Origin: Hyalangium ruber
GTDB lineage: Bacteria; Myxococcota; Myxococcia; Myxococcales; Myxococcaceae
DNA length: 64,000 bases
NCBI RefSeq assembly: GCF_034259325.1
Contig: NZ_JAXIVS010000011.1
Span: 62,001 to 126,000 of the forward strand
Direction: 5' to 3'
The translations under genes were made by a program, and so were the position numbers. Below are positions 38,403 through 46,083 of this stretch, one piece after another. Positions within the stretch are counted from its first letter, which is position 1, and each line of letters begins with the position of its first letter. The notes beneath the pieces were generated by a model, which saw nothing but the letters and a program-made list of their open reading frames with translations, was not told the DNA's origin and ran no database searches.

Positions 38403-41400
38403 TCAGGGCTGGGCGGGGAGCAGCAAGGCTTCCCGGGTCTCTGCTGGCGGGTTTGCGCCGAGCGCCAGATAGATCTCGAACCACGCCAGATAGGAGCGCC
38501 AGGAGGGGTGCCGCTGGTCGAGGAGGGAGCGGTGCGCCTGGCCCAGCCGCTTGGGTACGTCGAAGGGCATCTGCGCGGTTCCCTCCGCGTGCAACTGCGC
38601 GGCGAACCAGAGCACATCCAGTTGACCGGTATGGACCGGCGCGTGGGTGCGCTCGAGCAGGGAGTCGGCGTGCGCGATCGCCTGGCCCAACCAGCGGGCC
38701 GCGAGCGCCGTGTCCCGGCGCTCCACGGCATTCTCGGCCAGCCGCAGCTCCACCAGCATCACCGCGCCGATGTCCTCATCGCGATCCGACTCGGCGAACC
38801 GCTCCAGGAACAGCGCACGCCGCTGTTCGAGTGCGCGGGCGGCGGCATCCGGGCGCCCGAGTCGGGTCTCCGCATTGGCGCGCAGTCCAGAGGCGATGAT
38901 GCCGTAGGAGCGCTGAACGTGCCGGGGCGTGGCGCGTGACAAGCTCAGTGTGGCTTGCACGGCGGGGGTCTCCAGCTGTCGATCAATGATGTCCAGATCC
39001 TCCAACGCGCGCTGCGGCTGATCCGCCCCTAGCGCCGCGGCGCAGCGGGCCAGCCTCACCACCAGCCGGTTGCGCAGGCCCTCCTCGTCGCTGGGGCCCG
39101 CTTCCAAGGTGGGCAGCGCGCGATCGTAGAGCGCCAATGCACGCTCGAAGCGGCCCGCGGCGAGGTTGTAGAGCGCCGCGCGATCCAGCGCGAGGGGGAT
39201 GAACCTGGCGAGCTTCGGTTTGGCATCCACCATGGCCAGGGCGCGATCCGCCGCCTGCGCTGCCTCCGCCTCGCGGCCAACGTGTAAGAGCGCTTGGGCG
39301 CGGGCAAGGGACACCGCCAGCCCCGCGGCGTTGTCCACGTAGGGATACTTGTCCCGTTGATCGAGGTAGCCCAAGGCGATGTGGTAGTTGCCCACCTGGG
39401 TATGCAACTGCCCCAGCGCGCCGAGGATCATCGCTCGGTAGCGGATGTTGTTCCGCACCAGGTCCAAGGCGATCAAGTAGTGCCGGTTGGCGCGCTCGGC
39501 GGCGGCGGGCTTCCGGCCACGGAGGAAGTCCTCGTGCTGAATGGCGCCAGCCAGCGCGTGTACCGCTCGCTGGTTCTTGAGTTCCTTCCACGAGGCGCGC
39601 AGCGCTCCCATGGCCGCCTCCACCGCCTGGGAGTGGGCGCTACCCTCCAGCTTGGGCAACTGGCGCGCCGTGAGGTAGGCCTTCACGAAGTGCGCGAGAG
39701 GCTTGGCCATCTTCTCGGAGGTGGTGGTGACCTCCTTCTCCACCACCTCGGGGGGGACGTCGGCGCGCAAGCGCAGGTTCATGGATTCAACAGCACTTTC
39801 CAGGGAGCCCGTCCGCTGCGTCACGAGGTCGAAGTCGGCGCGGGCCTCGTCCTTGCGCTCTCTCGCCAGCCGACGGTAGGCGCGGCCCATCATCGCGCGG
39901 CGAAACAACCGCTCGGCCCGGCGGAGTTCCTGGGTGCCGGGCGGGGCGTCGTCGATGTAGAGCGTCGCCAACGCCTCCAGCACGCCGTCAGCGCCGAGCC
40001 CCGCCGCGCGCTCGACGGCTTCTTGCACCAGCGCTCGCCGTCGAATGGGATCCGTCTGCTGGCGGTAGAACGCGGTCAACGCGTCCCGGACCGGGCGGGG
40101 AGGGCGCTCCTCATGTATTGCGTTGACGTACCGGCCCAGCTCCAAGGCGAACGCATAGGCCGAGCCGGCGGGTGCCGCTGCGAGCGCCTGGGCCATGGCG
40201 GCATCCGCCTCGTCGTAGGGGCGTCCCCGGTACAGGGCTCGGACGGCCGCGCGAGCGAAGTCGAGCTGGTCCTCGTCCTGGAAGGCCTTGTTCAGGGAGA
40301 GCCGGCGGCCGGCTTCGACCAGGGCCTGCCGATCGTCGAGCTTGCGGTACAGCGCGTCCGCTCGCTCGAAGTAGGCTTCCAGCACCGCGCGCGTCGAGGA
40401 GTCCGTTACCTGGGCCGCCTCCAGCTCCTGACGCGCCAGCGTGAAGTCGCCAGCGGCCTCGGCCAGCTCACTGCGCACCACGTGTTGAAAGACGGCCGAG
40501 GGCGGGCTGGGAGCAGCGGCGGGATCCAGCGCGGCCATGCGCTGGCGCCCGCTGTCGCTCAGCTCGTCCACCATGCGGCCGCGTTCGCGTTCCTTCATGG
40601 TTCGTCGGTGGTCGATGAGGATCTGCATCGGCTCCGCCAGGCCCGCGGTGGCGGGATCGGGCACCGAGCGCATCTGGCGGGCGTAGAACTCCGCCGCCTC
40701 GAAGTCCTCGAAAGCCAGGTGGAGCTGGCTCATGCGCATCATCAGCAGGCGGCGGGGCTTGGGCCGGGCTTCGCGCAGCAGGCGTTGGCGATAGAGCAGG
40801 AGCTGATCCGCGCGCCTGCCAACCATCCCCAGTTCCTCGTTGAGACGCGGAACGTCCCAGTTGCTGGGAACCTGTCCATCCAGCGGCAGCTGAAACACAT
40901 CCAGGGAGCGATCGCGCGAGCAGGTCGCGATGAGGGAGGCGGCCGCGGGCGCCGGGTACTGGCAGTTCCAGGACACACTGGTGAGCTGGTCCGGGCTGGA
41001 GGCAGCGGCCAGCTCGGGTGCGTCCTCGCGCTCGGCCTCGAAGGGCATCCGGAACAGCACTCCGCTGTCGCTGGCGTCGATCACCCCGTCCGCGTTGGAG
41101 TCCGTGAAGAACTGCACCACGTACAGGGAGCGCCCATCGACAGCGAACATCGGCTGTCCCGTCTTTCCTGGGAGATCGAGCGCCAGCCGTACGGGGGCCG
41201 CGCCGGGGCGATCCAGCCGAAGTGCCTCCAGGTGGGGCGCGGCGCGCGCGGCGAAGCCGGGGCCCACCTGCCGCACGGAGCGCTCGATCGGGACGTACAC
41301 CAGCCAGCGCCCATCGGGTGAGAGGGTGGGGCTGGTCAGGTTGCGATCGAGCAGAGGCCTGGCGCTCAATTCGCTACCTACGGTGACTCGCGACAGCCGC

Positions 41401-41867
41401 AGATCGCCTTGGATGGTCGCCCTGCTCACCAGCGCGATATGCGAGGCATCGATCCACTCCGCCTGCAGCGCGCTGGTCTCTTCCACGAGGCAGCGGCGAC
41501 CTTCCGCATCGGGCAAGTCCCGCACACACAGCTGACCGCTGGCCTGGTCTCGGAACGAGATGTAGAGCAGGTGTTTGCCGTCAGGGCTGATCCGCGGCCA
41601 CGTCACGTCGGCGCCTTCGTCGAAGAGGCGGCGCTCGCGGCCTCCTTCCAGATCCTGAACGTAGATCTCGGTCGCGATGTTGCGGTTGGACAGGAAGATC
41701 AGCGTGTTCCCATCGGGCGCCAACTGCCCCAGAAAGTGATCTCCCACGCCCACGGTGAGCAGCGAGGGCGTGCGCAAGCCTCCATCGTTTTCATCGTCCT
41801 GCGCCCAGGCGCCGCTCGCGAGGAGGACGGCCAGGGCCAAGAGGCAGGGGCCACGGGGCGTCAGCAC
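38403..41867 (-). CDS. Exported beta-propeller plus TPR giant protein
   Basis: An 1154-aa protein with a signal peptide (MLTPRGPCLLALAVLLASGA ending WAQ). Residues about 35-340 form a TolB/WD40-like propeller (LAPDGNTLIFLSNRN, ISPDGKHLLYISFR, LSPDGRWLVYVP). One blade contains DSNADGVIDASD (about 253-264), a dockerin/EF-hand-like calcium loop. Residues about 370-1150 are helical and TPR-like (LHLAFEDFEAAEFYARQM, ALGQLHTQVGNYHIALGYLD). Probably periplasmic or outer-membrane associated, acting as a scaffold. Its GTG lies inside the end of the small lipoprotein gene (7-nt overlap), making it the last gene of a three-gene operon. I do not recognise a named family for the whole protein. Confidence 0.75.
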   Translation of the reverse strand: MLTPRGPCLLALAVLLASGAWAQDDENDGGLRTPSLLTVGVGDHFLGQLAPDGNTLIFLSNRNIATEIYVQDLEGGRERRLFDEGADVTWPRISPDGKHLLYISFRDQASGQLCVRDLPDAEGRRCLVEETSALQAEWIDASHIALVSRATIQGDLRLSRVTVGSELSARPLLDRNLTSPTLSPDGRWLVYVPIERSVRQVGPGFAARAAPHLEALRLDRPGAAPVRLALDLPGKTGQPMFAVDGRSLYVVQFFTDSNADGVIDASDSGVLFRMPFEAEREDAPELAAASSPDQLTSVSWNCQYPAPAAASLIATCSRDRSLDVFQLPLDGQVPSNWDVPRLNEELGMVGRRADQLLLYRQRLLREARPKPRRLLMMRMSQLHLAFEDFEAAEFYARQMRSVPDPATAGLAEPMQILIDHRRTMKERERGRMVDELSDSGRQRMAALDPAAAPSPPSAVFQHVVRSELAEAAGDFTLARQELEAAQVTDSSTRAVLEAYFERADALYRKLDDRQALVEAGRRLSLNKAFQDEDQLDFARAAVRALYRGRPYDEADAAMAQALAAAPAGSAYAFALELGRYVNAIHEERPPRPVRDALTAFYRQQTDPIRRRALVQEAVERAAGLGADGVLEALATLYIDDAPPGTQELRRAERLFRRAMMGRAYRRLARERKDEARADFDLVTQRTGSLESAVESMNLRLRADVPPEVVEKEVTTTSEKMAKPLAHFVKAYLTARQLPKLEGSAHSQAVEAAMGALRASWKELKNQRAVHALAGAIQHEDFLRGRKPAAAERANRHYLIALDLVRNNIRYRAMILGALGQLHTQVGNYHIALGYLDQRDKYPYVDNAAGLAVSLARAQALLHVGREAEAAQAADRALAMVDAKPKLARFIPLALDRAALYNLAAGRFERALALYDRALPTLEAGPSDEEGLRNRLVVRLARCAAALGADQPQRALEDLDIIDRQLETPAVQATLSLSRATPRHVQRSYGIIASGLRANAETRLGRPDAAARALEQRRALFLERFAESDRDEDIGAVMLVELRLAENAVERRDTALAARWLGQAIAHADSLLERTHAPVHTGQLDVLWFAAQLHAEGTAQMPFDVPKRLGQAHRSLLDQRHPSWRSYLAWFEIYLALGANPPAETREALLLPAQP

Positions 41868-42400
41868 TTCTTCTCTCCCCAGGTGCCGTCATCGGCTTCC
41901 ACCCAGCCGCCGCAGACCACCCCCTGGGCGTGGACCTGTTGCCAGCTCCGGCGCAACGACTCTTCGGGCACGCCGGGGCGGACCGTTCGCATCCATTGCC
42001 ACAGCTGCAGCCGGGCTCGGTTCACCCGCTCCACCAGGGCGACGTCATCGGCCGACAAACGCCTGGCCTGGCACTGACGCCGGGTGTCCACCAGCAGCCC
42101 GTCCTTTCCTTCGCCCACGCAGTGACGGCGGAGCAGTTCGTCGACGCGGTCCGCCTGCGTCTTGCCCACGTTCTCGACCAACGCCGTGGGTTGGAGGCCC
42201 AGCTCCTCCAGTTGGTTGGGTGTGAGCGGCACCGGCGTCGGGCTCATTCCCGCGCGAGCCAGCCGCTGCTCCACCTCCTTGAACGAGCCCGCGGCCTGTT
42301 CTTCGAGCGCGGTCGCGCGATCGACCATGACGATCTCCGGGGCGCTGATGCACCCGGCGGAGGCGAGGGCGGCAAGCAGCAGCAACACGCGGTGTTTCAC
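41861..42400 (-). CDS. Small lipoprotein, middle gene of AsmA-propeller operon
   Basis: A 179-aa lipoprotein with signal MKHRVLLLLAALASAGC and lipobox SAGC. The mature part is mostly helical and charged (ATALEEQAAGSFKEVEQRLA, LTPNQLEELGLQPTALVENV, DRVDELLRRHCVGEGKDGLL) with several Cys. A DUF1318/YdbL-like relationship is possible, because YnbE/YdbL-type small proteins accompany the AsmA-like YdbH in enterobacteria, but the identity is weak. GTG 42400 overlaps the AsmA-like stop codon (GTGA), and its own stop overlaps the next start. All three products are therefore strongly coupled. Confidence 0.75.
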   Translation of the reverse strand: MKHRVLLLLAALASAGCISAPEIVMVDRATALEEQAAGSFKEVEQRLARAGMSPTPVPLTPNQLEELGLQPTALVENVGKTQADRVDELLRRHCVGEGKDGLLVDTRRQCQARRLSADDVALVERVNRARLQLWQWMRTVRPGVPEESLRRSWQQVHAQGVVCGGWVEADDGTWGEKKC

Positions 42401-45400
42401 GGCGTGGCCTCCACGAGGGACAAGGAGTTGATGACACGGTCGACGATGGGGCCCATGGGAATGCCCCGGATCTCGTCGATGCTGAGCAGGCTGGCCGCGC
42501 CGCCCATGGTGATGCTCAGGCGGCCAAAGCCATGGTTGAAGCTCACCCGCACGTTCTTCGGGTAACCCAGTCCCAACGCGTAGCGGACGCGGTTGGTCGC
42601 GGGATCGGTGTGGTGCGGATCCTCGAGGTCGAGCAGATCGAGCAGGTGACGGTTGCCAATGCGCAGGATCTCCGCGCGCCCGTTGACGCTGCGGTCCTTG
42701 CCCGAGACGACCACGGCGATATTTCCGTCGAAGGGCTCGCCTCGGGACGACTGCACGCCGGTCGCCCGCACGTGTGCCTGCAGGGTGGAGTGATTTCCTT
42801 GCCAGTCCAGCATGCACTGCCCGGTGATACGCCCACCGCGGACGCCCATCTCCAGCTGACTCATGGAGACCACGTTCTGGTTGATGGACAGGTTTCCGGC
42901 CAGGGGCGCGATGGAGAGGTAGGGCGTGGTGATGCTGCCCGCCGACACGAAGCCACTGCGCGAGAGCAAGGGGTGTTGGTCGGTGAAGCGAAGCATCGAG
43001 TACGGGTTCACGTCGATGTCGCTCAGCAGTCGCACCTGGCCTTGGGAGAGCTCCACGTTCTCGGTCAGCGGCACGTTGCCATCGAGCGCCTGGACCGAGA
43101 TCCCCGCTTCGGGCAGCCGCACGTGTACGTTCTGGAGGAGCAGGTTGGAGAGGGTTCGGAAGACCACCAGATCGGGCGAAGCCACCTGGAAATCGACCGT
43201 GACCTTGCCGCTGCTCTCGAGCCGGCCCGGCTGCGCGAGCTTGGACAAGTCCTGGGTCAACTCACCTTGGACCGCCAGGCGGCGCCCGTTGTCGCTGAGG
43301 TCGAGCCGGCCTCTGGCTTTCAGCTGGGTACTTGTCCCCGCATGGGTCAGTTGCAGGTCGGGGACGTGAATGACGCCGTTGGGCTTACGGCGAGCGGAGA
43401 ACGACCACTCCAGATCCTGAACCGGATAGGGCAGTGCCGGCCTCTGTTCGAGGGAGCGGACCTTCATGAGGTGTCTCAGCTCGACCTCGTCCGCCTCCAA
43501 CCGCTCGGTGAAGGTGGCGGTGGTGTCGCTGGACAGGTCGGCGAGGGAGAGCCGGCGATCGCCCATGCCCACGGTGAGTTTCTCCACCGTCAGGAGGCTG
43601 TGGACGCTTCGCCGTGCCCCTTCGACGTGCGACTCGACCTGCCAGTGCAGGGCAGGGAGGTTGAGCGACTGGCCCGCCTGTCTCCAGCGGATGCCGCGTG
43701 CGTCCACCACCGCCTTTCCCTCGAAGCTCGCCGTCCGCTGAGGGGCGGGGGCCAGGCTGGGGGTGCCGTCGGCGGCGATGTCCGTGAGCACTCCGAGCAG
43801 CGTGCCATGCAACTCGACGTTCAGCGCGAGCCGCGAGGTGTCCAGCTCCGTGGGCACCTGAGCCTTGGCCAGAAGGGGGGACCATTCCCCGAGGGTCGGA
43901 AGGTCGCCCTTCACATCCACGCGAAGCGCGCGGGCTTTTCGGTCGAACGCCAGTGCGGCATCGAGCGCGATCTTCAGCCCTGCATGGCTGGTGAGCCCAA
44001 GCCGAAGCGACGGCTTGCGGCGATCGAGGTTCAGCGTCACGGCCTGGTGCTGAGGACCCATGTCCTTCTCACCGGCGCGCAGCCCTTCGACCTTGAGGTC
44101 CAGTTCGCCCTGATGCCGCCAGGAGTCTCCTTGAGAGCGCATCACGGCGGTGAGGCTGCTGGCCGACACGTCGTCCCATCCCGGCCGCTGCAGGCGCAGC
44201 TCCGTTCGGTGCTCCAACCGGGGCGAGGGGGAAAAGAGCGCCGCCAGTCTGCCGGTGGAGGCCAGGTTGACGGCCAGCTGATTCCAGGGAACGCGCGCGG
44301 CGACCGACTCGGGGATGAAGGGCCGAACAGCCACGAGGTCCGGGGTCTGGACGGCCAAGGTGTACGCCACATCGTCGGTCCCCTTGGTGGCATCCAGCGA
44401 CGCGTGCATCGTGCCAAGGTCGAGTTCCAGATGGGCGCGGGCCCGGCCAAGTCGCGGCTCGTCCCACCGAGGGAAGGCCTCCGACGCGTCGAGCTTGATG
44501 CGCACGGGGCCCTGCAGCACCTCGCGTCCATCCGCCAGGACCACCCGGAGCGCCCCCACGGGCACATCCGCCTTCAGCGCGAAGGGCGGCTCACCCGCCA
44601 AGGGAGCTTGGAGGTGAAAGCCAAGACGTTCCGCGGACGCACGGATCCCAGAGGCACGGAGGTCCAAGGCATCCACCATTCCGGACAGGGCAACATCCCC
44701 CGCAACCTGGATGGGCGAGGAGAGGTCTGGCCGCAGCTGCCGACCCTTCAGCTCCCCGGAGGCCTTCGGAATACGAAGCGTGGTGGGCCCCCCGACATCG
44801 AGCGCTTGAAGCGCAAAGGTGAGTCGAGCGTCCAGCCCCTTGGACGAATCCGGAGTCGCCACCAGGGAGACGCGTCCATTGCCGAGGGCCACCCGAAGAT
44901 CGTCTTGAGCGAGCTGGAGCGCCGCGACGTCGACGTCCAGCCCGAGTTTCCCTTGAGGGCCCAGCTGCGGCATGGCGCTGAGCGTGAGCTCCTGAGCGTC
45001 CAGATGCACGGTGCCGCGCTCGAGGGAGAACGGCCGCAAATCGGCGGGAATCCATTGCAACAGTCGCCCGAGATCCAGATCCACTGAGAGCCGCGTCACG
45101 ACGGGCGGGACATCCGCCGCATCCGGAAGCACCAACCGGGCTTGCACTTCGGCGCTGTCGGTCAGTTGGGTGCGGTCCAGCTCGATGGCGATGTGCCGCT
45201 TCTCACCATCGAACTTCGCGGAGGCCGAGCCGTGCAGCAGGGAGCGGACGGTGAACCGCGGATCGAAGGTCTGCCGTGCGACATCGAGATCCACCCGCAC
45301 GCGAGTGTCCATCGCCCCCGCCTCCGCCGAGAGGGCCAGTTCCAGCAGGGCCTGGGCCGACGGAAGGGCTGCGCCTTCACGGCTCACTTCCAGGGCAAGC

Positions 45401-46083
45401 GGCGTACCGGTCTGGCCGAGCTGCGCGGAGAGCTTCCATCCGTCGTTCTGATGCTTCGCTTCGGCTGTGGCTGCGAGCCCACGTAGGGACCAGCGCTCGA
45501 GCACTTCGCTGTTCCGAACGCGCACGTAGCTCAACGATCCGCCCGACACCTCAACCTTCCCCAAGGGGGGCGCGGAGGCCAGGAGGACAGCGAGCTGCTG
45601 CGAGGCTCCGAGGGGGGCTTTCACGGGCGGCGGCTCAGGTGTACTCGGCCCCATCAACTCCGTAAGAGACGTGGGCCCCGCATCGTCGGCCACCAGGACA
45701 AAGGCCACGTCCCGCACCGCCACCCGCTCAATCTGGGTGGCCCCGCTTAGCAGCGAGCTGGGTGACCATTGCGCCTCCAGCGTGCCGACGCGCAGCAGTT
45801 CGGGCGCGACGGTGTGAAAGGGCGACGGGGTACGCACCACCAGCCCTTCGAGCCGCAGGCCCGAGAGCAGGGCGACCTCGGCTGTCTGGTAGTCCAGCCG
45901 CAGGCCGGTGGCCGCTTCCGCCTTGGAGACGATGCGCTGTTTCAACCAGGGGTGTTCGAGGTTGTGCAGCGCGGCCACCGTCGTAGCCAACACCAGCGCG
46001 AGGGCCGCACCGAGTGCCAGGAGCACGCCTGCGATGATTCGAGCCAGCTGACGGCGAGGTCGTCCAGCTCCGTGGGATTCCAT
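42397..46083 (-). CDS. AsmA/TamB-like bridge protein (YdbH-like)
   Basis: A 1228-aa protein. One N-terminal membrane anchor (about 14-38; IIAGVLLALGAALALVLATT) is followed by EHPWLKQRIVSKAEAATGLRLD, the classical AsmA-type entry. A very long run of short beta-strand repeats (LELDLGTMHASLD, LDVDVAALQLAQDDLRVALG, and so on) forms the extended groove of repeating-beta-groove proteins such as YdbH, TamB and AsmA. It ends with an amphipathic segment (FGRLSITMGGAASLLSIDEI). These proteins bridge inner and outer membranes and carry phospholipids. Similarity is architectural; YdbH is favoured by the small lipoprotein following it. It is the first gene of an operon with overlapping junctions, 116 bp after the EEP gene. 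Confidence 0.75.
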   Translation of the reverse strand: MESHGAGRPRRQLARIIAGVLLALGAALALVLATTVAALHNLEHPWLKQRIVSKAEAATGLRLDYQTAEVALLSGLRLEGLVVRTPSPFHTVAPELLRVGTLEAQWSPSSLLSGATQIERVAVRDVAFVLVADDAGPTSLTELMGPSTPEPPPVKAPLGASQQLAVLLASAPPLGKVEVSGGSLSYVRVRNSEVLERWSLRGLAATAEAKHQNDGWKLSAQLGQTGTPLALEVSREGAALPSAQALLELALSAEAGAMDTRVRVDLDVARQTFDPRFTVRSLLHGSASAKFDGEKRHIAIELDRTQLTDSAEVQARLVLPDAADVPPVVTRLSVDLDLGRLLQWIPADLRPFSLERGTVHLDAQELTLSAMPQLGPQGKLGLDVDVAALQLAQDDLRVALGNGRVSLVATPDSSKGLDARLTFALQALDVGGPTTLRIPKASGELKGRQLRPDLSSPIQVAGDVALSGMVDALDLRASGIRASAERLGFHLQAPLAGEPPFALKADVPVGALRVVLADGREVLQGPVRIKLDASEAFPRWDEPRLGRARAHLELDLGTMHASLDATKGTDDVAYTLAVQTPDLVAVRPFIPESVAARVPWNQLAVNLASTGRLAALFSPSPRLEHRTELRLQRPGWDDVSASSLTAVMRSQGDSWRHQGELDLKVEGLRAGEKDMGPQHQAVTLNLDRRKPSLRLGLTSHAGLKIALDAALAFDRKARALRVDVKGDLPTLGEWSPLLAKAQVPTELDTSRLALNVELHGTLLGVLTDIAADGTPSLAPAPQRTASFEGKAVVDARGIRWRQAGQSLNLPALHWQVESHVEGARRSVHSLLTVEKLTVGMGDRRLSLADLSSDTTATFTERLEADEVELRHLMKVRSLEQRPALPYPVQDLEWSFSARRKPNGVIHVPDLQLTHAGTSTQLKARGRLDLSDNGRRLAVQGELTQDLSKLAQPGRLESSGKVTVDFQVASPDLVVFRTLSNLLLQNVHVRLPEAGISVQALDGNVPLTENVELSQGQVRLLSDIDVNPYSMLRFTDQHPLLSRSGFVSAGSITTPYLSIAPLAGNLSINQNVVSMSQLEMGVRGGRITGQCMLDWQGNHSTLQAHVRATGVQSSRGEPFDGNIAVVVSGKDRSVNGRAEILRIGNRHLLDLLDLEDPHHTDPATNRVRYALGLGYPKNVRVSFNHGFGRLSITMGGAASLLSIDEIRGIPMGPIVDRVINSLSLVEATP

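What the first reader, a model, noticed from the sequence alone, without database searches (positions are those of the whole stretch)
38403..46083. Undescribed envelope operon: AsmA/TamB-like bridge, small lipoprotein, exported propeller-TPR giant
Three genes are fused into one translational unit: the AsmA-like stop overlaps the lipoprotein GTG (GTGA), and the lipoprotein stop overlaps the next GTG by 7 nt. A bridge-type repeating-beta-groove protein, a lipoprotein and a 1154-aa periplasmic propeller/TPR scaffold with a calcium-loop-like DSNADGVIDASD would make a plausible lipid-transport or envelope-surveillance complex. The order recalls YdbH with its small partners in enterobacteria, but the giant third protein is new to me.
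Basis: partly seen in the sequence, partly recalled or inferred. Interest (0 to 1): 0.72.

Follow-up and report, generated by a model that had tools for sequence, protein, structure and literature searches.

The report
Coupled envelope-bridge operon of myxobacteria
Three overlapping genes that travel together in myxobacteria probably encode a lipid-carrying bridge between the two cell membranes, a lipid-anchored partner related to E. coli YdbL, and a large periplasmic scaffold whose longer relatives carry a caspase-like protease domain.

Summary
In detail: three minus-strand genes (AsmA-like 46083-42397, lipoprotein 42400-41861, exported propeller/helical-repeat protein 41867-38403) overlap by 4 and 7 nt. 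The trio is a real unit: strong matches to all three fall in the same 70 of 193 Myxococcota genomes, and the 7-nt overlap recurs in 46 of 55 loci. One complete genome shows a deletion remnant. Hylemonella and Methylotuvimicrobium also carry the genes, probably by transfer. The lipoprotein is a DUF1318/YdbL relative. The AsmA protein is a predicted beta-groove bridge but not a YdbH-family member, and no YnbE was found. The third protein has a TolB-like propeller plus a ~40-helix solenoid, and is collinear with the N-terminal half of ~2,500-aa relatives. Those follow the same lipoprotein in 10 other genomes; a C-terminal CHAT (caspase-like) domain is found in 7 of the 8 that could be judged. Best reading: an AsmA-family intermembrane phospholipid bridge with a YdbL-type lipoprotein at its outer-membrane end and a periplasmic scaffold. 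Physical contact and lipid transport are inferred, not shown. New variant of a known kind.

The parts
42397..46083 (-). AsmA-superfamily protein, 1228 aa; N-terminal membrane helix, then a long series of beta strands
   Evidence: Pfam AsmA 41.5 bits vs cut-off 29.8; AF2 of residues 29-1228 pLDDT 84.5, pTM 0.51; Foldseek best match LPD-3 E 8.7e-7, low TM-score
42499..43254 (-). C-terminal part of the AsmA-like protein (residues 944-1195), which holds all 17 invariant columns of a 29-sequence alignment; presumed outer-membrane-side docking end
   Evidence: the docking role is inferred from YdbH and TamB
41861..42400 (-). DUF1318 (YdbL-like) lipoprotein, 179 aa, lipobox ASAGC
   Evidence: DUF1318 E 2.5e-5, 25.1 bits, below cut-off 27; 25-member profile without E. 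coli rows hits solved YdbL 28oj E 5.9e-5
41870..42154 (-). DUF1318 segment of the lipoprotein (residues 83-177)
38403..41867 (-). exported 1154-aa protein: Sec-type signal peptide, TolB-like beta-propeller, long helical-repeat solenoid
   Evidence: AF2 pLDDT 88.3, pTM 0.77
40869..41777 (-). TolB-like beta-propeller (residues 31-333)
   Evidence: PD40 59.1 bits; TolB chains Z 22-25, rmsd 2.3-2.9, 235-250 aligned
41067..41102 (-). calcium-type loop DSNADGVIDASD (residues 256-267) in the propeller
   Evidence: D256, D260, D264, D267 invariant in 35 sequences; calcium binding not tested
38457..40853 (-). helical-repeat (TPR-like) solenoid, residues 339-1137
   Evidence: about 40 helices in the AF2 model; LGN/Pins TPR Z 20-21 over 758-1145
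42397..42400 (-). 4-nt stop/start overlap GTGA between gene 1 and gene 2
   Evidence: a 4-nt overlap is available in 46 of 53 relatives
41861..41867 (-). 7-nt stop/start overlap GTGCTGA between gene 2 and gene 3
   Evidence: RTGYTGA in 46 of 55 relatives

Best explanation
The operon encodes an AsmA-family intermembrane bridge. Protein 1 is anchored in the inner membrane by its N-terminal helix and spans the periplasm as a beta-groove along which phospholipids slide. Its strongly conserved C-terminus meets protein 2, an outer-membrane lipoprotein of the YdbL (DUF1318) family that combines in one polypeptide a lipid-anchored N-terminal segment (the job of YnbE in E. coli) and a YdbL-type chaperone-like domain. 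Protein 3 is a soluble periplasmic scaffold: its TolB-like propeller binds the outer-membrane end (lipoprotein or AsmA C-terminus) and its long solenoid braces or caps the bridge. Overlapping genes keep the subunits in ratio. Shown by computation: gene overlaps, domain content, predicted folds, co-conservation, one joint deletion, and presence in two distant lineages that fits transfer. Inferred: the physical complex, phospholipid as cargo, hydrophobic lining of the groove, outer-membrane location of the lipoprotein, and each protein's job.
For: Same 70 of 193 genomes for all three genes (set equality checked). In 55 named loci genes 2 and 3 are together in 55 (gene 2 only half present in L118), gene 1 is in the locus in 53, next to gene 2 in 51. 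Pairwise distances of the three proteins correlate at r 0.93-0.94 over 32 of the 55 loci. A complete one-contig genome without the trio, G162, keeps a 206-bp 3' piece of gene 3. Presence in Hylemonella and Methylotuvimicrobium. Predicted all-beta bridge whose top structural match is a bridge-type lipid-transfer protein. DUF1318 links the lipoprotein to YdbL of the E. coli ydbH-ynbE-ydbL locus; YdbH works with the outer-membrane lipoprotein YnbE (passages of PMC12977461 and PMC11784454). E. coli ydbH/ynbE, with the same 4-nt overlap, is strongly translation-coupled in experiment (PMC6728339 passages).
Against: No interface was modelled, as no co-folding tool is offered. The AsmA protein does not align with YdbH and PF11739 is absent from all 70 trio genomes at E 0.001, so the transport role rests on superfamily and fold. 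AF2 pTM of the bridge is 0.51 and Foldseek TM-scores are at most 0.2 for the five best hits. The window lipoprotein's own DUF1318 score is below the curated cut-off, a 14-member profile of the short-variant lipoproteins alone finds no solved structure at E up to 10, and its hhalign probability against YdbL is 47.6 (E 1.9e-4). 123 of 193 Myxococcota genomes lack the trio, so it is not generally essential there. Distance correlations of this size can come from shared ancestry alone.
Confidence: 0.6

Rival explanations
1. The AsmA-like protein with its lipoprotein and scaffold assembles or exports something other than phospholipid (outer-membrane proteins, surface lipoproteins or a polysaccharide), as TamB or GspN do, with the propeller/TPR-like protein linking periplasmic and outer-membrane parts as PG1058 does in type IX secretion.
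For: Weak GspN-model match (16.2 bits, cut-off 50); GspN is used in type II secretion of surface lipoproteins (PMC12802150, title and start of abstract in the listing). PG1058, an exported TPR plus propeller lipoprotein, is needed for T9SS export and proposed as a scaffold (PMC5053529 abstract).
Against: No flanking gene family recurs in more than 3 of 28 divergent loci except one small lipoprotein in 9 (flanks were clustered, not annotated). No TamB Pfam match. The YdbL link points to the YdbH-type lipid system.
Confidence: 0.17
2. The unit is mainly a surveillance or quality-control device: the propeller-solenoid protein senses envelope state, in its long form as a CHAT-domain lipoprotein, and the AsmA and DUF1318 proteins are its receptor or clients rather than a transport route.
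For: Collinear long relatives, with CHAT found by Pfam in 7 of 8 that could be judged. In one family the long form stands beside a large membrane-protein gene, a chemoreceptor-type protein in the one scanned, instead of the AsmA gene. Calcium-type loop conserved.
Against: The window version has no CHAT domain. The AsmA gene stays beside the lipoprotein gene in that family although the giant is not there (L079-L083), which points to bridge plus lipoprotein as the core.
Confidence: 0.16
3. Ordinary neighbouring genes without shared function.
For: Short overlaps are common in compact high-GC genomes (general knowledge).
Against: Same 70 genomes for all three, joint deletion remnant, presence together in distant lineages, non-recurring flanks.
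Confidence: 0.02

Closest known systems
E. coli YdbH-YnbE-YdbL intermembrane phospholipid bridge
   Same: AsmA-superfamily bridge gene first, 4-nt overlap to a lipoprotein gene, and a DUF1318 protein in the locus.
   Different: Bridge not in the YdbH family; no YnbE found; the DUF1318 protein is itself the lipoprotein; a 1154-aa propeller-solenoid protein is added.
TAM (TamA/TamB) and TamL/TamB of Bacteroidota
   Same: Inner-membrane anchor and long beta structure; Pfam AsmA match. TamL shows that an AsmA-family bridge can pair with an outer-membrane lipoprotein outside E. coli (PMC12045153, start of abstract and passages).
   Different: No TamB Pfam match; TamL is a TamA-like barrel protein, whereas the lipoprotein here is a small DUF1318 protein.
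TolB of Tol-Pal
   Same: Propeller fold, Z 22-25.
   Different: TIGR02800 47.1 bits against a cut-off of 343.15; a ~800-residue solenoid follows the propeller; the own genome has a separate 389-aa ORF with the propeller match (G000:C2:563700-564155), perhaps the true TolB.
PG1058 (PorE), type IX secretion component
   Same: Exported protein joining TPR and beta-propeller; proposed periplasm-outer-membrane scaffold (abstract).
   Different: Opposite domain order, extra carboxypeptidase-regulatory and OmpA-C-like domains, itself a predicted lipoprotein; here no lipobox and no OmpA match. The name PorE is recalled.
TPR-CHAT proteases (e.g. Csx29 of Craspase)
   Same: Long relatives of the third protein end in a CHAT domain after TPRs.
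   Different: Those relatives have exported-lipoprotein N-termini (by eye) and mostly lie behind an AsmA-type gene, unlike the CRISPR-associated Csx29 (listing and start of abstract of PMC10028731); the window protein has no CHAT.

Membership tests
YdbH-YnbE-YdbL system | bridge belongs to YdbH family PF11739 | tested here: not met
   0 of 29 AsmA-like members match PF11739 at E 0.01; control E. coli YdbH 969.8 bits; PF11739 at E 0.001 in 9 of 193 genomes, 1 over cut-off, none of them among the 70 trio genomes; hhalign probability 0.3
YdbH-YnbE-YdbL system | YnbE-like lipoprotein PF13617 | tested here: not met
   only DUF1318 found in the 28 proteins scanned at E 0.01; no PF13617 match in the own genome at E 0.1, control genomes ring; control YnbE 59.3 bits
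YdbH-YnbE-YdbL system | DUF1318 (YdbL) protein in the operon | tested here: met
   23 of 28 scanned at E 0.01, one of the 28 being E. coli YdbL itself; window protein 25.1 bits, below cut-off 27; relative L079 over cut-off, 36.9 bits; 25-member profile without E. coli hits solved YdbL E 5.9e-5
YdbH-YnbE-YdbL system | phospholipid transport between the membranes | not testable with these tools
   needs genetics or biochemistry
AsmA superfamily | Pfam AsmA match over cut-off | tested here: met
   41.5 bits vs 29.8; AsmA match at E 0.01 in 23 of 29 members scanned
AsmA superfamily | N-terminal helix followed by long beta structure | tested here: met
   model of residues 29-1228, pLDDT 84.5, helices then about 60 strands; hydrophobic lining of a groove not measured
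TAM (TamB) | TamB Pfam domain | tested here: not met
   no TamB family among Pfam matches of the window protein at E 1 or of 29 members at E 0.01
TAM (TamB) | Omp85 (TamA-type) partner encoded nearby | tested here: inconclusive
   no flanking family recurs in more than 3 of 28 loci except a small lipoprotein, but flanks were not annotated
TolB | TolB equivalog model over cut-off | tested here: not met
   47.1 bits vs 343.15
TolB | TolB propeller fold | tested here: met
   Z 22-25 with TolB chains
TPR-CHAT proteases | CHAT domain in the window protein | tested here: not met
   no CHAT match in P0003 at E 1; found by Pfam in 7 of 8 long relatives scanned (not in L066)
PG1058/PorE | TPR, propeller, CRD, OmpA-C-like order | tested here: not met
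   propeller first then solenoid, no OmpA match; definition from the abstract

The most novel reading that the evidence does not exclude
An old form of this machine is an intermembrane lipid bridge that carries its own outer-membrane-anchored caspase-like (CHAT) protease: a propeller reads the bridge's outer-membrane end, a TPR solenoid transmits the state, and the CHAT domain cleaves an envelope substrate when the bridge is jammed or empty. The Myxococcales version in the window has kept the sensing half without the protease. If so, caspase-like proteolysis operates in a bacterial periplasm as part of lipid homeostasis.
Probability: 0.28. Interest if true: 0.87.

Novelty: new variant of a known kind. 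Interest (0 to 1): 0.66.

Why it matters
Which outer-membrane partners AsmA-family bridges use is an open question. A 2024 review notes for E. [quoted passage not shown] 1 legend); in Bacteroidota the lipoprotein TamL pairs with TamB (PMC12045153). Here a bridge outside the YdbH family has a gene-coupled lipoprotein that is a YdbL relative. The same small domain thus sits beside two bridges that do not align in sequence, which argues that DUF1318 acts on bridges in general. The trio also names a large new candidate subunit with a predicted structure and testable contacts, present in a Myxococcus xanthus strain and in Methylotuvimicrobium buryatense 5G, and it connects lipid bridges to CHAT-domain lipoproteins.

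Tried and rejected
YdbH membership of the AsmA protein: rejected. TamB family: no match. TolB orthology of gene 3: rejected by score. A first hhalign of the lipoprotein alignment against YdbL (probability 97.8, E 7.5e-13) was circular, because E. coli YdbL was a row of alignment A2; I discard it and use A6 (E 1.9e-4, probability 47.6) and A7 (solved YdbL 28oj E 5.9e-5). A6 alone finds no solved structure. A recurring neighbour that would reveal cargo: none except a small CxxCH lipoprotein. Promoter/terminator scan: uninformative (0 promoters; 1 terminator-like site against 2.9 expected). VIA-align of the AsmA model lists apoB and beta-barrels at Z 9-14, read as a common beta arrangement only. 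Sequence search of solved structures with the AsmA profile: no match. A direct test for the trio in other Comamonadaceae or Methylococcales was not possible. Literature on the name DUF1318: 1 paper listed, on hemp rhizosphere.

Rows dropped: for the tree I left out L112, L118, L129, L134, L135, L138 (short, broken or edge) and thinned close Myxococcaceae, so 37 of 55 loci plus the window were used; it is a quick tree without bootstrap or AU test, with long branches and uneven composition flagged by the tool. For the distance correlation 32 of 55 loci were used. Exceptions to the trio: L118 has only the C-terminal half of gene 2 plus gene 3 and no AsmA match in the upstream 9.4 kb; L112 ends at a contig edge. 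Of 10 long-form genomes, no AsmA match was seen upstream in G002 (8.5 kb) or G026 (0.8 kb examined, contig of 4,908 bases). The AsmA profile used there contains the rows of L066, L068, L071, L074, L075, L076, L080 and L083, so those matches are by construction; L187, L189, L079, L081 and L082 are independent. In G005 (L066) Pfam finds no CHAT at E 1e-4 although a His and a Cys motif are visible. The long forms of G026 and G030 run off their contigs and were not judged for CHAT.
Full report
WHAT IS THERE. The three ORFs and both overlaps are as described. Gene 1 (46083-42397, minus strand) encodes 1228 aa, gene 2 (42400-41861) a 179-aa lipoprotein, gene 3 (41867-38403) 1154 aa. Upstream on the same strand, 116 nt away, is an endonuclease/exonuclease/phosphatase-family gene, and downstream, 7 nt away, a convergent P450 gene.

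DOMAINS. Gene 1 product: Pfam AsmA 41.5 bits over a cut-off of 29.8, weak DUF748. Gene 2 product: DUF1318 (the YdbL family) at E 2.5e-5 but 25.1 bits, just under the cut-off of 27. Of 28 proteins scanned (the window's, 26 relatives, and E. coli YdbL as one row) 23 match DUF1318 at E 0.01; relative L079 is over the cut-off with 36.9 bits. A profile of 25 family members without E. coli rows finds one solved structure, 28oj, named 'Probable chaperone-like protein YdbL' (E 5.9e-5). Gene 3 product: PD40 propeller repeats (59.1 bits) and a TolB model match far under its cut-off.

PREDICTED STRUCTURES. AF2 with a 35-row alignment gives the gene 3 product pLDDT 88.3, pTM 0.77: a propeller and then about 40 helices. 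The propeller superposes on TolB (Z 22-25, rmsd 2.3-2.9, 235-250 residues) and the C-terminal part of the solenoid on LGN/Pins TPRs (Z 20-21). The gene 1 product (residues 29-1228, 29 rows) gives pLDDT 84.5, pTM 0.51, an almost unbroken series of strands. The best Foldseek match is the bridge-type lipid-transfer protein LPD-3 (E 8.7e-7, probability 1.00), then apolipoprotein B; TM-scores are low. All 17 invariant columns of the AsmA alignment lie between full-length residues 944 and 1195. In other bridges this end meets the outer-membrane partner: strand pairing between the YdbH C-terminus and YnbE has been proposed (PMC12045153 passage).

IS IT A UNIT? Yes. In 193 Myxococcota genomes, strong matches to gene 1 (E below 1e-30), gene 2 (over 100 bits) and gene 3 (over 400 bits) fall in the same 70 genomes (listings; set equality checked), side by side by coordinates except in G168, where 5.9 kb separates genes 1 and 2. 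In genera where other members have the trio, G122, G084, G153 and G162 lack all three; for G162, a one-contig genome, a 206-bp 3' piece of gene 3 shows a deletion, for the others loss is an inference. A scan of the named genome collection (one genome for each of 84,980 species, by two degenerate peptide patterns) gave 55 loci: genes 2 and 3 together in 55 of 55, gene 1 in the locus in 53 of 55, next to gene 2 in 51. Exceptions: L112 (contig edge), L118 (half of gene 2, no AsmA match upstream), L101 (the same contig as G168) and L131 (Methylotuvimicrobium, 7.4 kb between). The 7-nt overlap RTGYTGA is at the gene 2 stop in 46 of 55, and a 4-nt overlap start for gene 2 exists in 46 of 53. Distances of the three proteins correlate at r 0.93, 0.93 and 0.94 (496 pairs from 32 loci); shared ancestry alone raises such values. 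In 28 divergent loci no flanking family recurs in more than 3 except a small lipoprotein.

TRANSFER. Hylemonella gracilis (two strains, with several flanking genes shared between them) carries the trio, gene 3 at 63-66% identity to Myxococcaceae. The quick tree nests the pair between a Myxococcaceae MAG and the other Myxococcaceae/Archangiaceae (SH-aLRT 98 and 100). Methylotuvimicrobium buryatense 5G groups with a MAG labelled Myxococcaceae (100, both on long branches). 'Comamonas sp. KCTC 72670' groups with M. xanthus and may be a mislabelled assembly.

THE LONG VERSION. In other Myxococcota families the gene after the DUF1318 lipoprotein encodes about 2,500-2,850 aa. Pfam finds PD40 and TPR repeats in all 8 scanned and a C-terminal CHAT domain in 7 of the 8 (L068, L071, L073, L074, L075, L206, L207; E 3e-32 to 5e-51); in L066 CHAT is not found at E 1e-4. 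The N-termini of L066, L068, L071, L074 and L075 look like lipoprotein signals by eye. The gene 3 family profile aligns from about position 10-24 to 950-1110 with the first ~950-1,140 residues of all 10 giants examined (full-sequence E 7e-27 to 8e-58; in L075 in two pieces), so the window protein corresponds to their N-terminal half. A His and a Cys in CHAT-like motifs are visible in all 10 (that these are the catalytic pair is recalled). By position, a long relative lies directly behind the lipoprotein in 10 genomes (G002, G005, G011, G018, G025, G026, G030, G034, G038, G041); in G026 and G030 it runs off the contig. An AsmA match lies upstream in 8 of these 10. In 8 genomes of one family (f13) the long relative is on another contig than the lipoprotein, and in the five read (L067, L069, L070, L072, L077) a large membrane-protein gene stands beside it, a chemoreceptor-type protein in L070, the one scanned. 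In that family the lipoprotein gene faces an AsmA gene tail to tail in the five loci L079-L083. Two of the eight (G027, G042) also hold the short trio. Of 88 genomes with the lipoprotein among 195 searched, all but G045 (70% complete) and G019 (partial match) also have a short or long gene 3 relative, and none of the 86 genomes with such a relative lacks the lipoprotein. Whether the short form lost the CHAT half or the long form gained it is not settled.

A FOURTH GENE. In 9 of 28 divergent loci a small gene lies directly downstream. In the eight read in full it encodes a short protein with a lipobox-like N-terminus and a CxxCH haem motif (one of three scanned has a weak cytochrome c match). 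The window has no such gene: a convergent P450 gene follows.

MECHANISM. Best supported is an AsmA-family bridge in which the DUF1318 lipoprotein does the anchoring job of YnbE and the chaperone-like job of YdbL, braced by the propeller-solenoid protein. The lipid role is inherited from the superfamily and the YdbL link: YdbH interacts with the outer-membrane lipoprotein YnbE in E. coli (Kumar et al. 2024, not held, seen only as cited in PMC12977461 and PMC11784454), and YhdP, TamB and YdbH are redundant but essential for outer-membrane lipid homeostasis (PMC8593681, title, start of abstract and one passage). E. coli ydbH/ynbE, with a 4-nt overlap, is experimentally translation-coupled (PMC6728339 passages). 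Nothing here measures lipid transfer.

MEMBERSHIP AND NOVELTY. It is an AsmA-superfamily system but not a YdbH-YnbE-YdbL system: two defining features fail (YdbH family; YnbE) and one is met (DUF1318). It may work like one, with a different bridge, a fused-role lipoprotein and a new large subunit. I found no paper on this trio among the rows listed by the searches (full-text library of open-licence papers only; between 1 and 30 rows listed per search). The most novel reading, a lipid bridge with its own periplasmic caspase-like protease, rests on operon position and collinearity and is untested.

Noticed in passing
L070:3755-14300 (also L067, L069, L072, L077): Long propeller-TPR proteins (CHAT-like motifs read in four of the five) beside a large membrane-protein gene (MCP signalling domain in L070, the one scanned) in one Myxococcota family: a possible receptor-coupled exported caspase-like protease.
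   Followed up: partly
L121:11301-11834; also L120, L123, L124, L125, L137, L139, L140, L141: A small lipobox-bearing CxxCH (haem-type) protein gene directly after gene 3 in 9 divergent loci (eight read in full).
   Followed up: partly
L100, L102 (Hylemonella gracilis): The whole trio in two Betaproteobacteria strains, nested among Myxococcaceae on a quick tree and with flanking genes shared between the two strains: probable inter-phylum transfer of a cell-envelope operon.
   Followed up: partly
L131 (Methylotuvimicrobium buryatense 5G): Genes 2 and 3 together and the AsmA gene 7.4 kb upstream in a methanotroph genome.
   Followed up: partly
L094 (BNCN01000004.1): Record titled Comamonas sp. 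KCTC 72670 carries a Myxococcus-like trio (75% to the window, groups with M. xanthus); possibly a mislabelled or mixed assembly.
   Followed up: no
L065:8466-8671 (G162): 206-bp 3' remnant of gene 3 in a one-contig genome without the trio: a deletion of the unit.
   Followed up: yes
window 41861-42400: In the short version the lipoprotein keeps Cys94, Cys163 and a C-terminal Cys179 (invariant in 14 of 14) and nearly always Cys110, suggesting two disulfides; the C-terminal TGC-TGA also supplies the next gene's GTG.
   Followed up: partly
L052 / L101 (G168): 5.9 kb between the AsmA gene and the lipoprotein gene, the only break of adjacency among the 70 genomes.
   Followed up: no
G000 (own genome): Ten CHAT-domain matches in the own genome, none on the trio's contig C11.
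   Followed up: no
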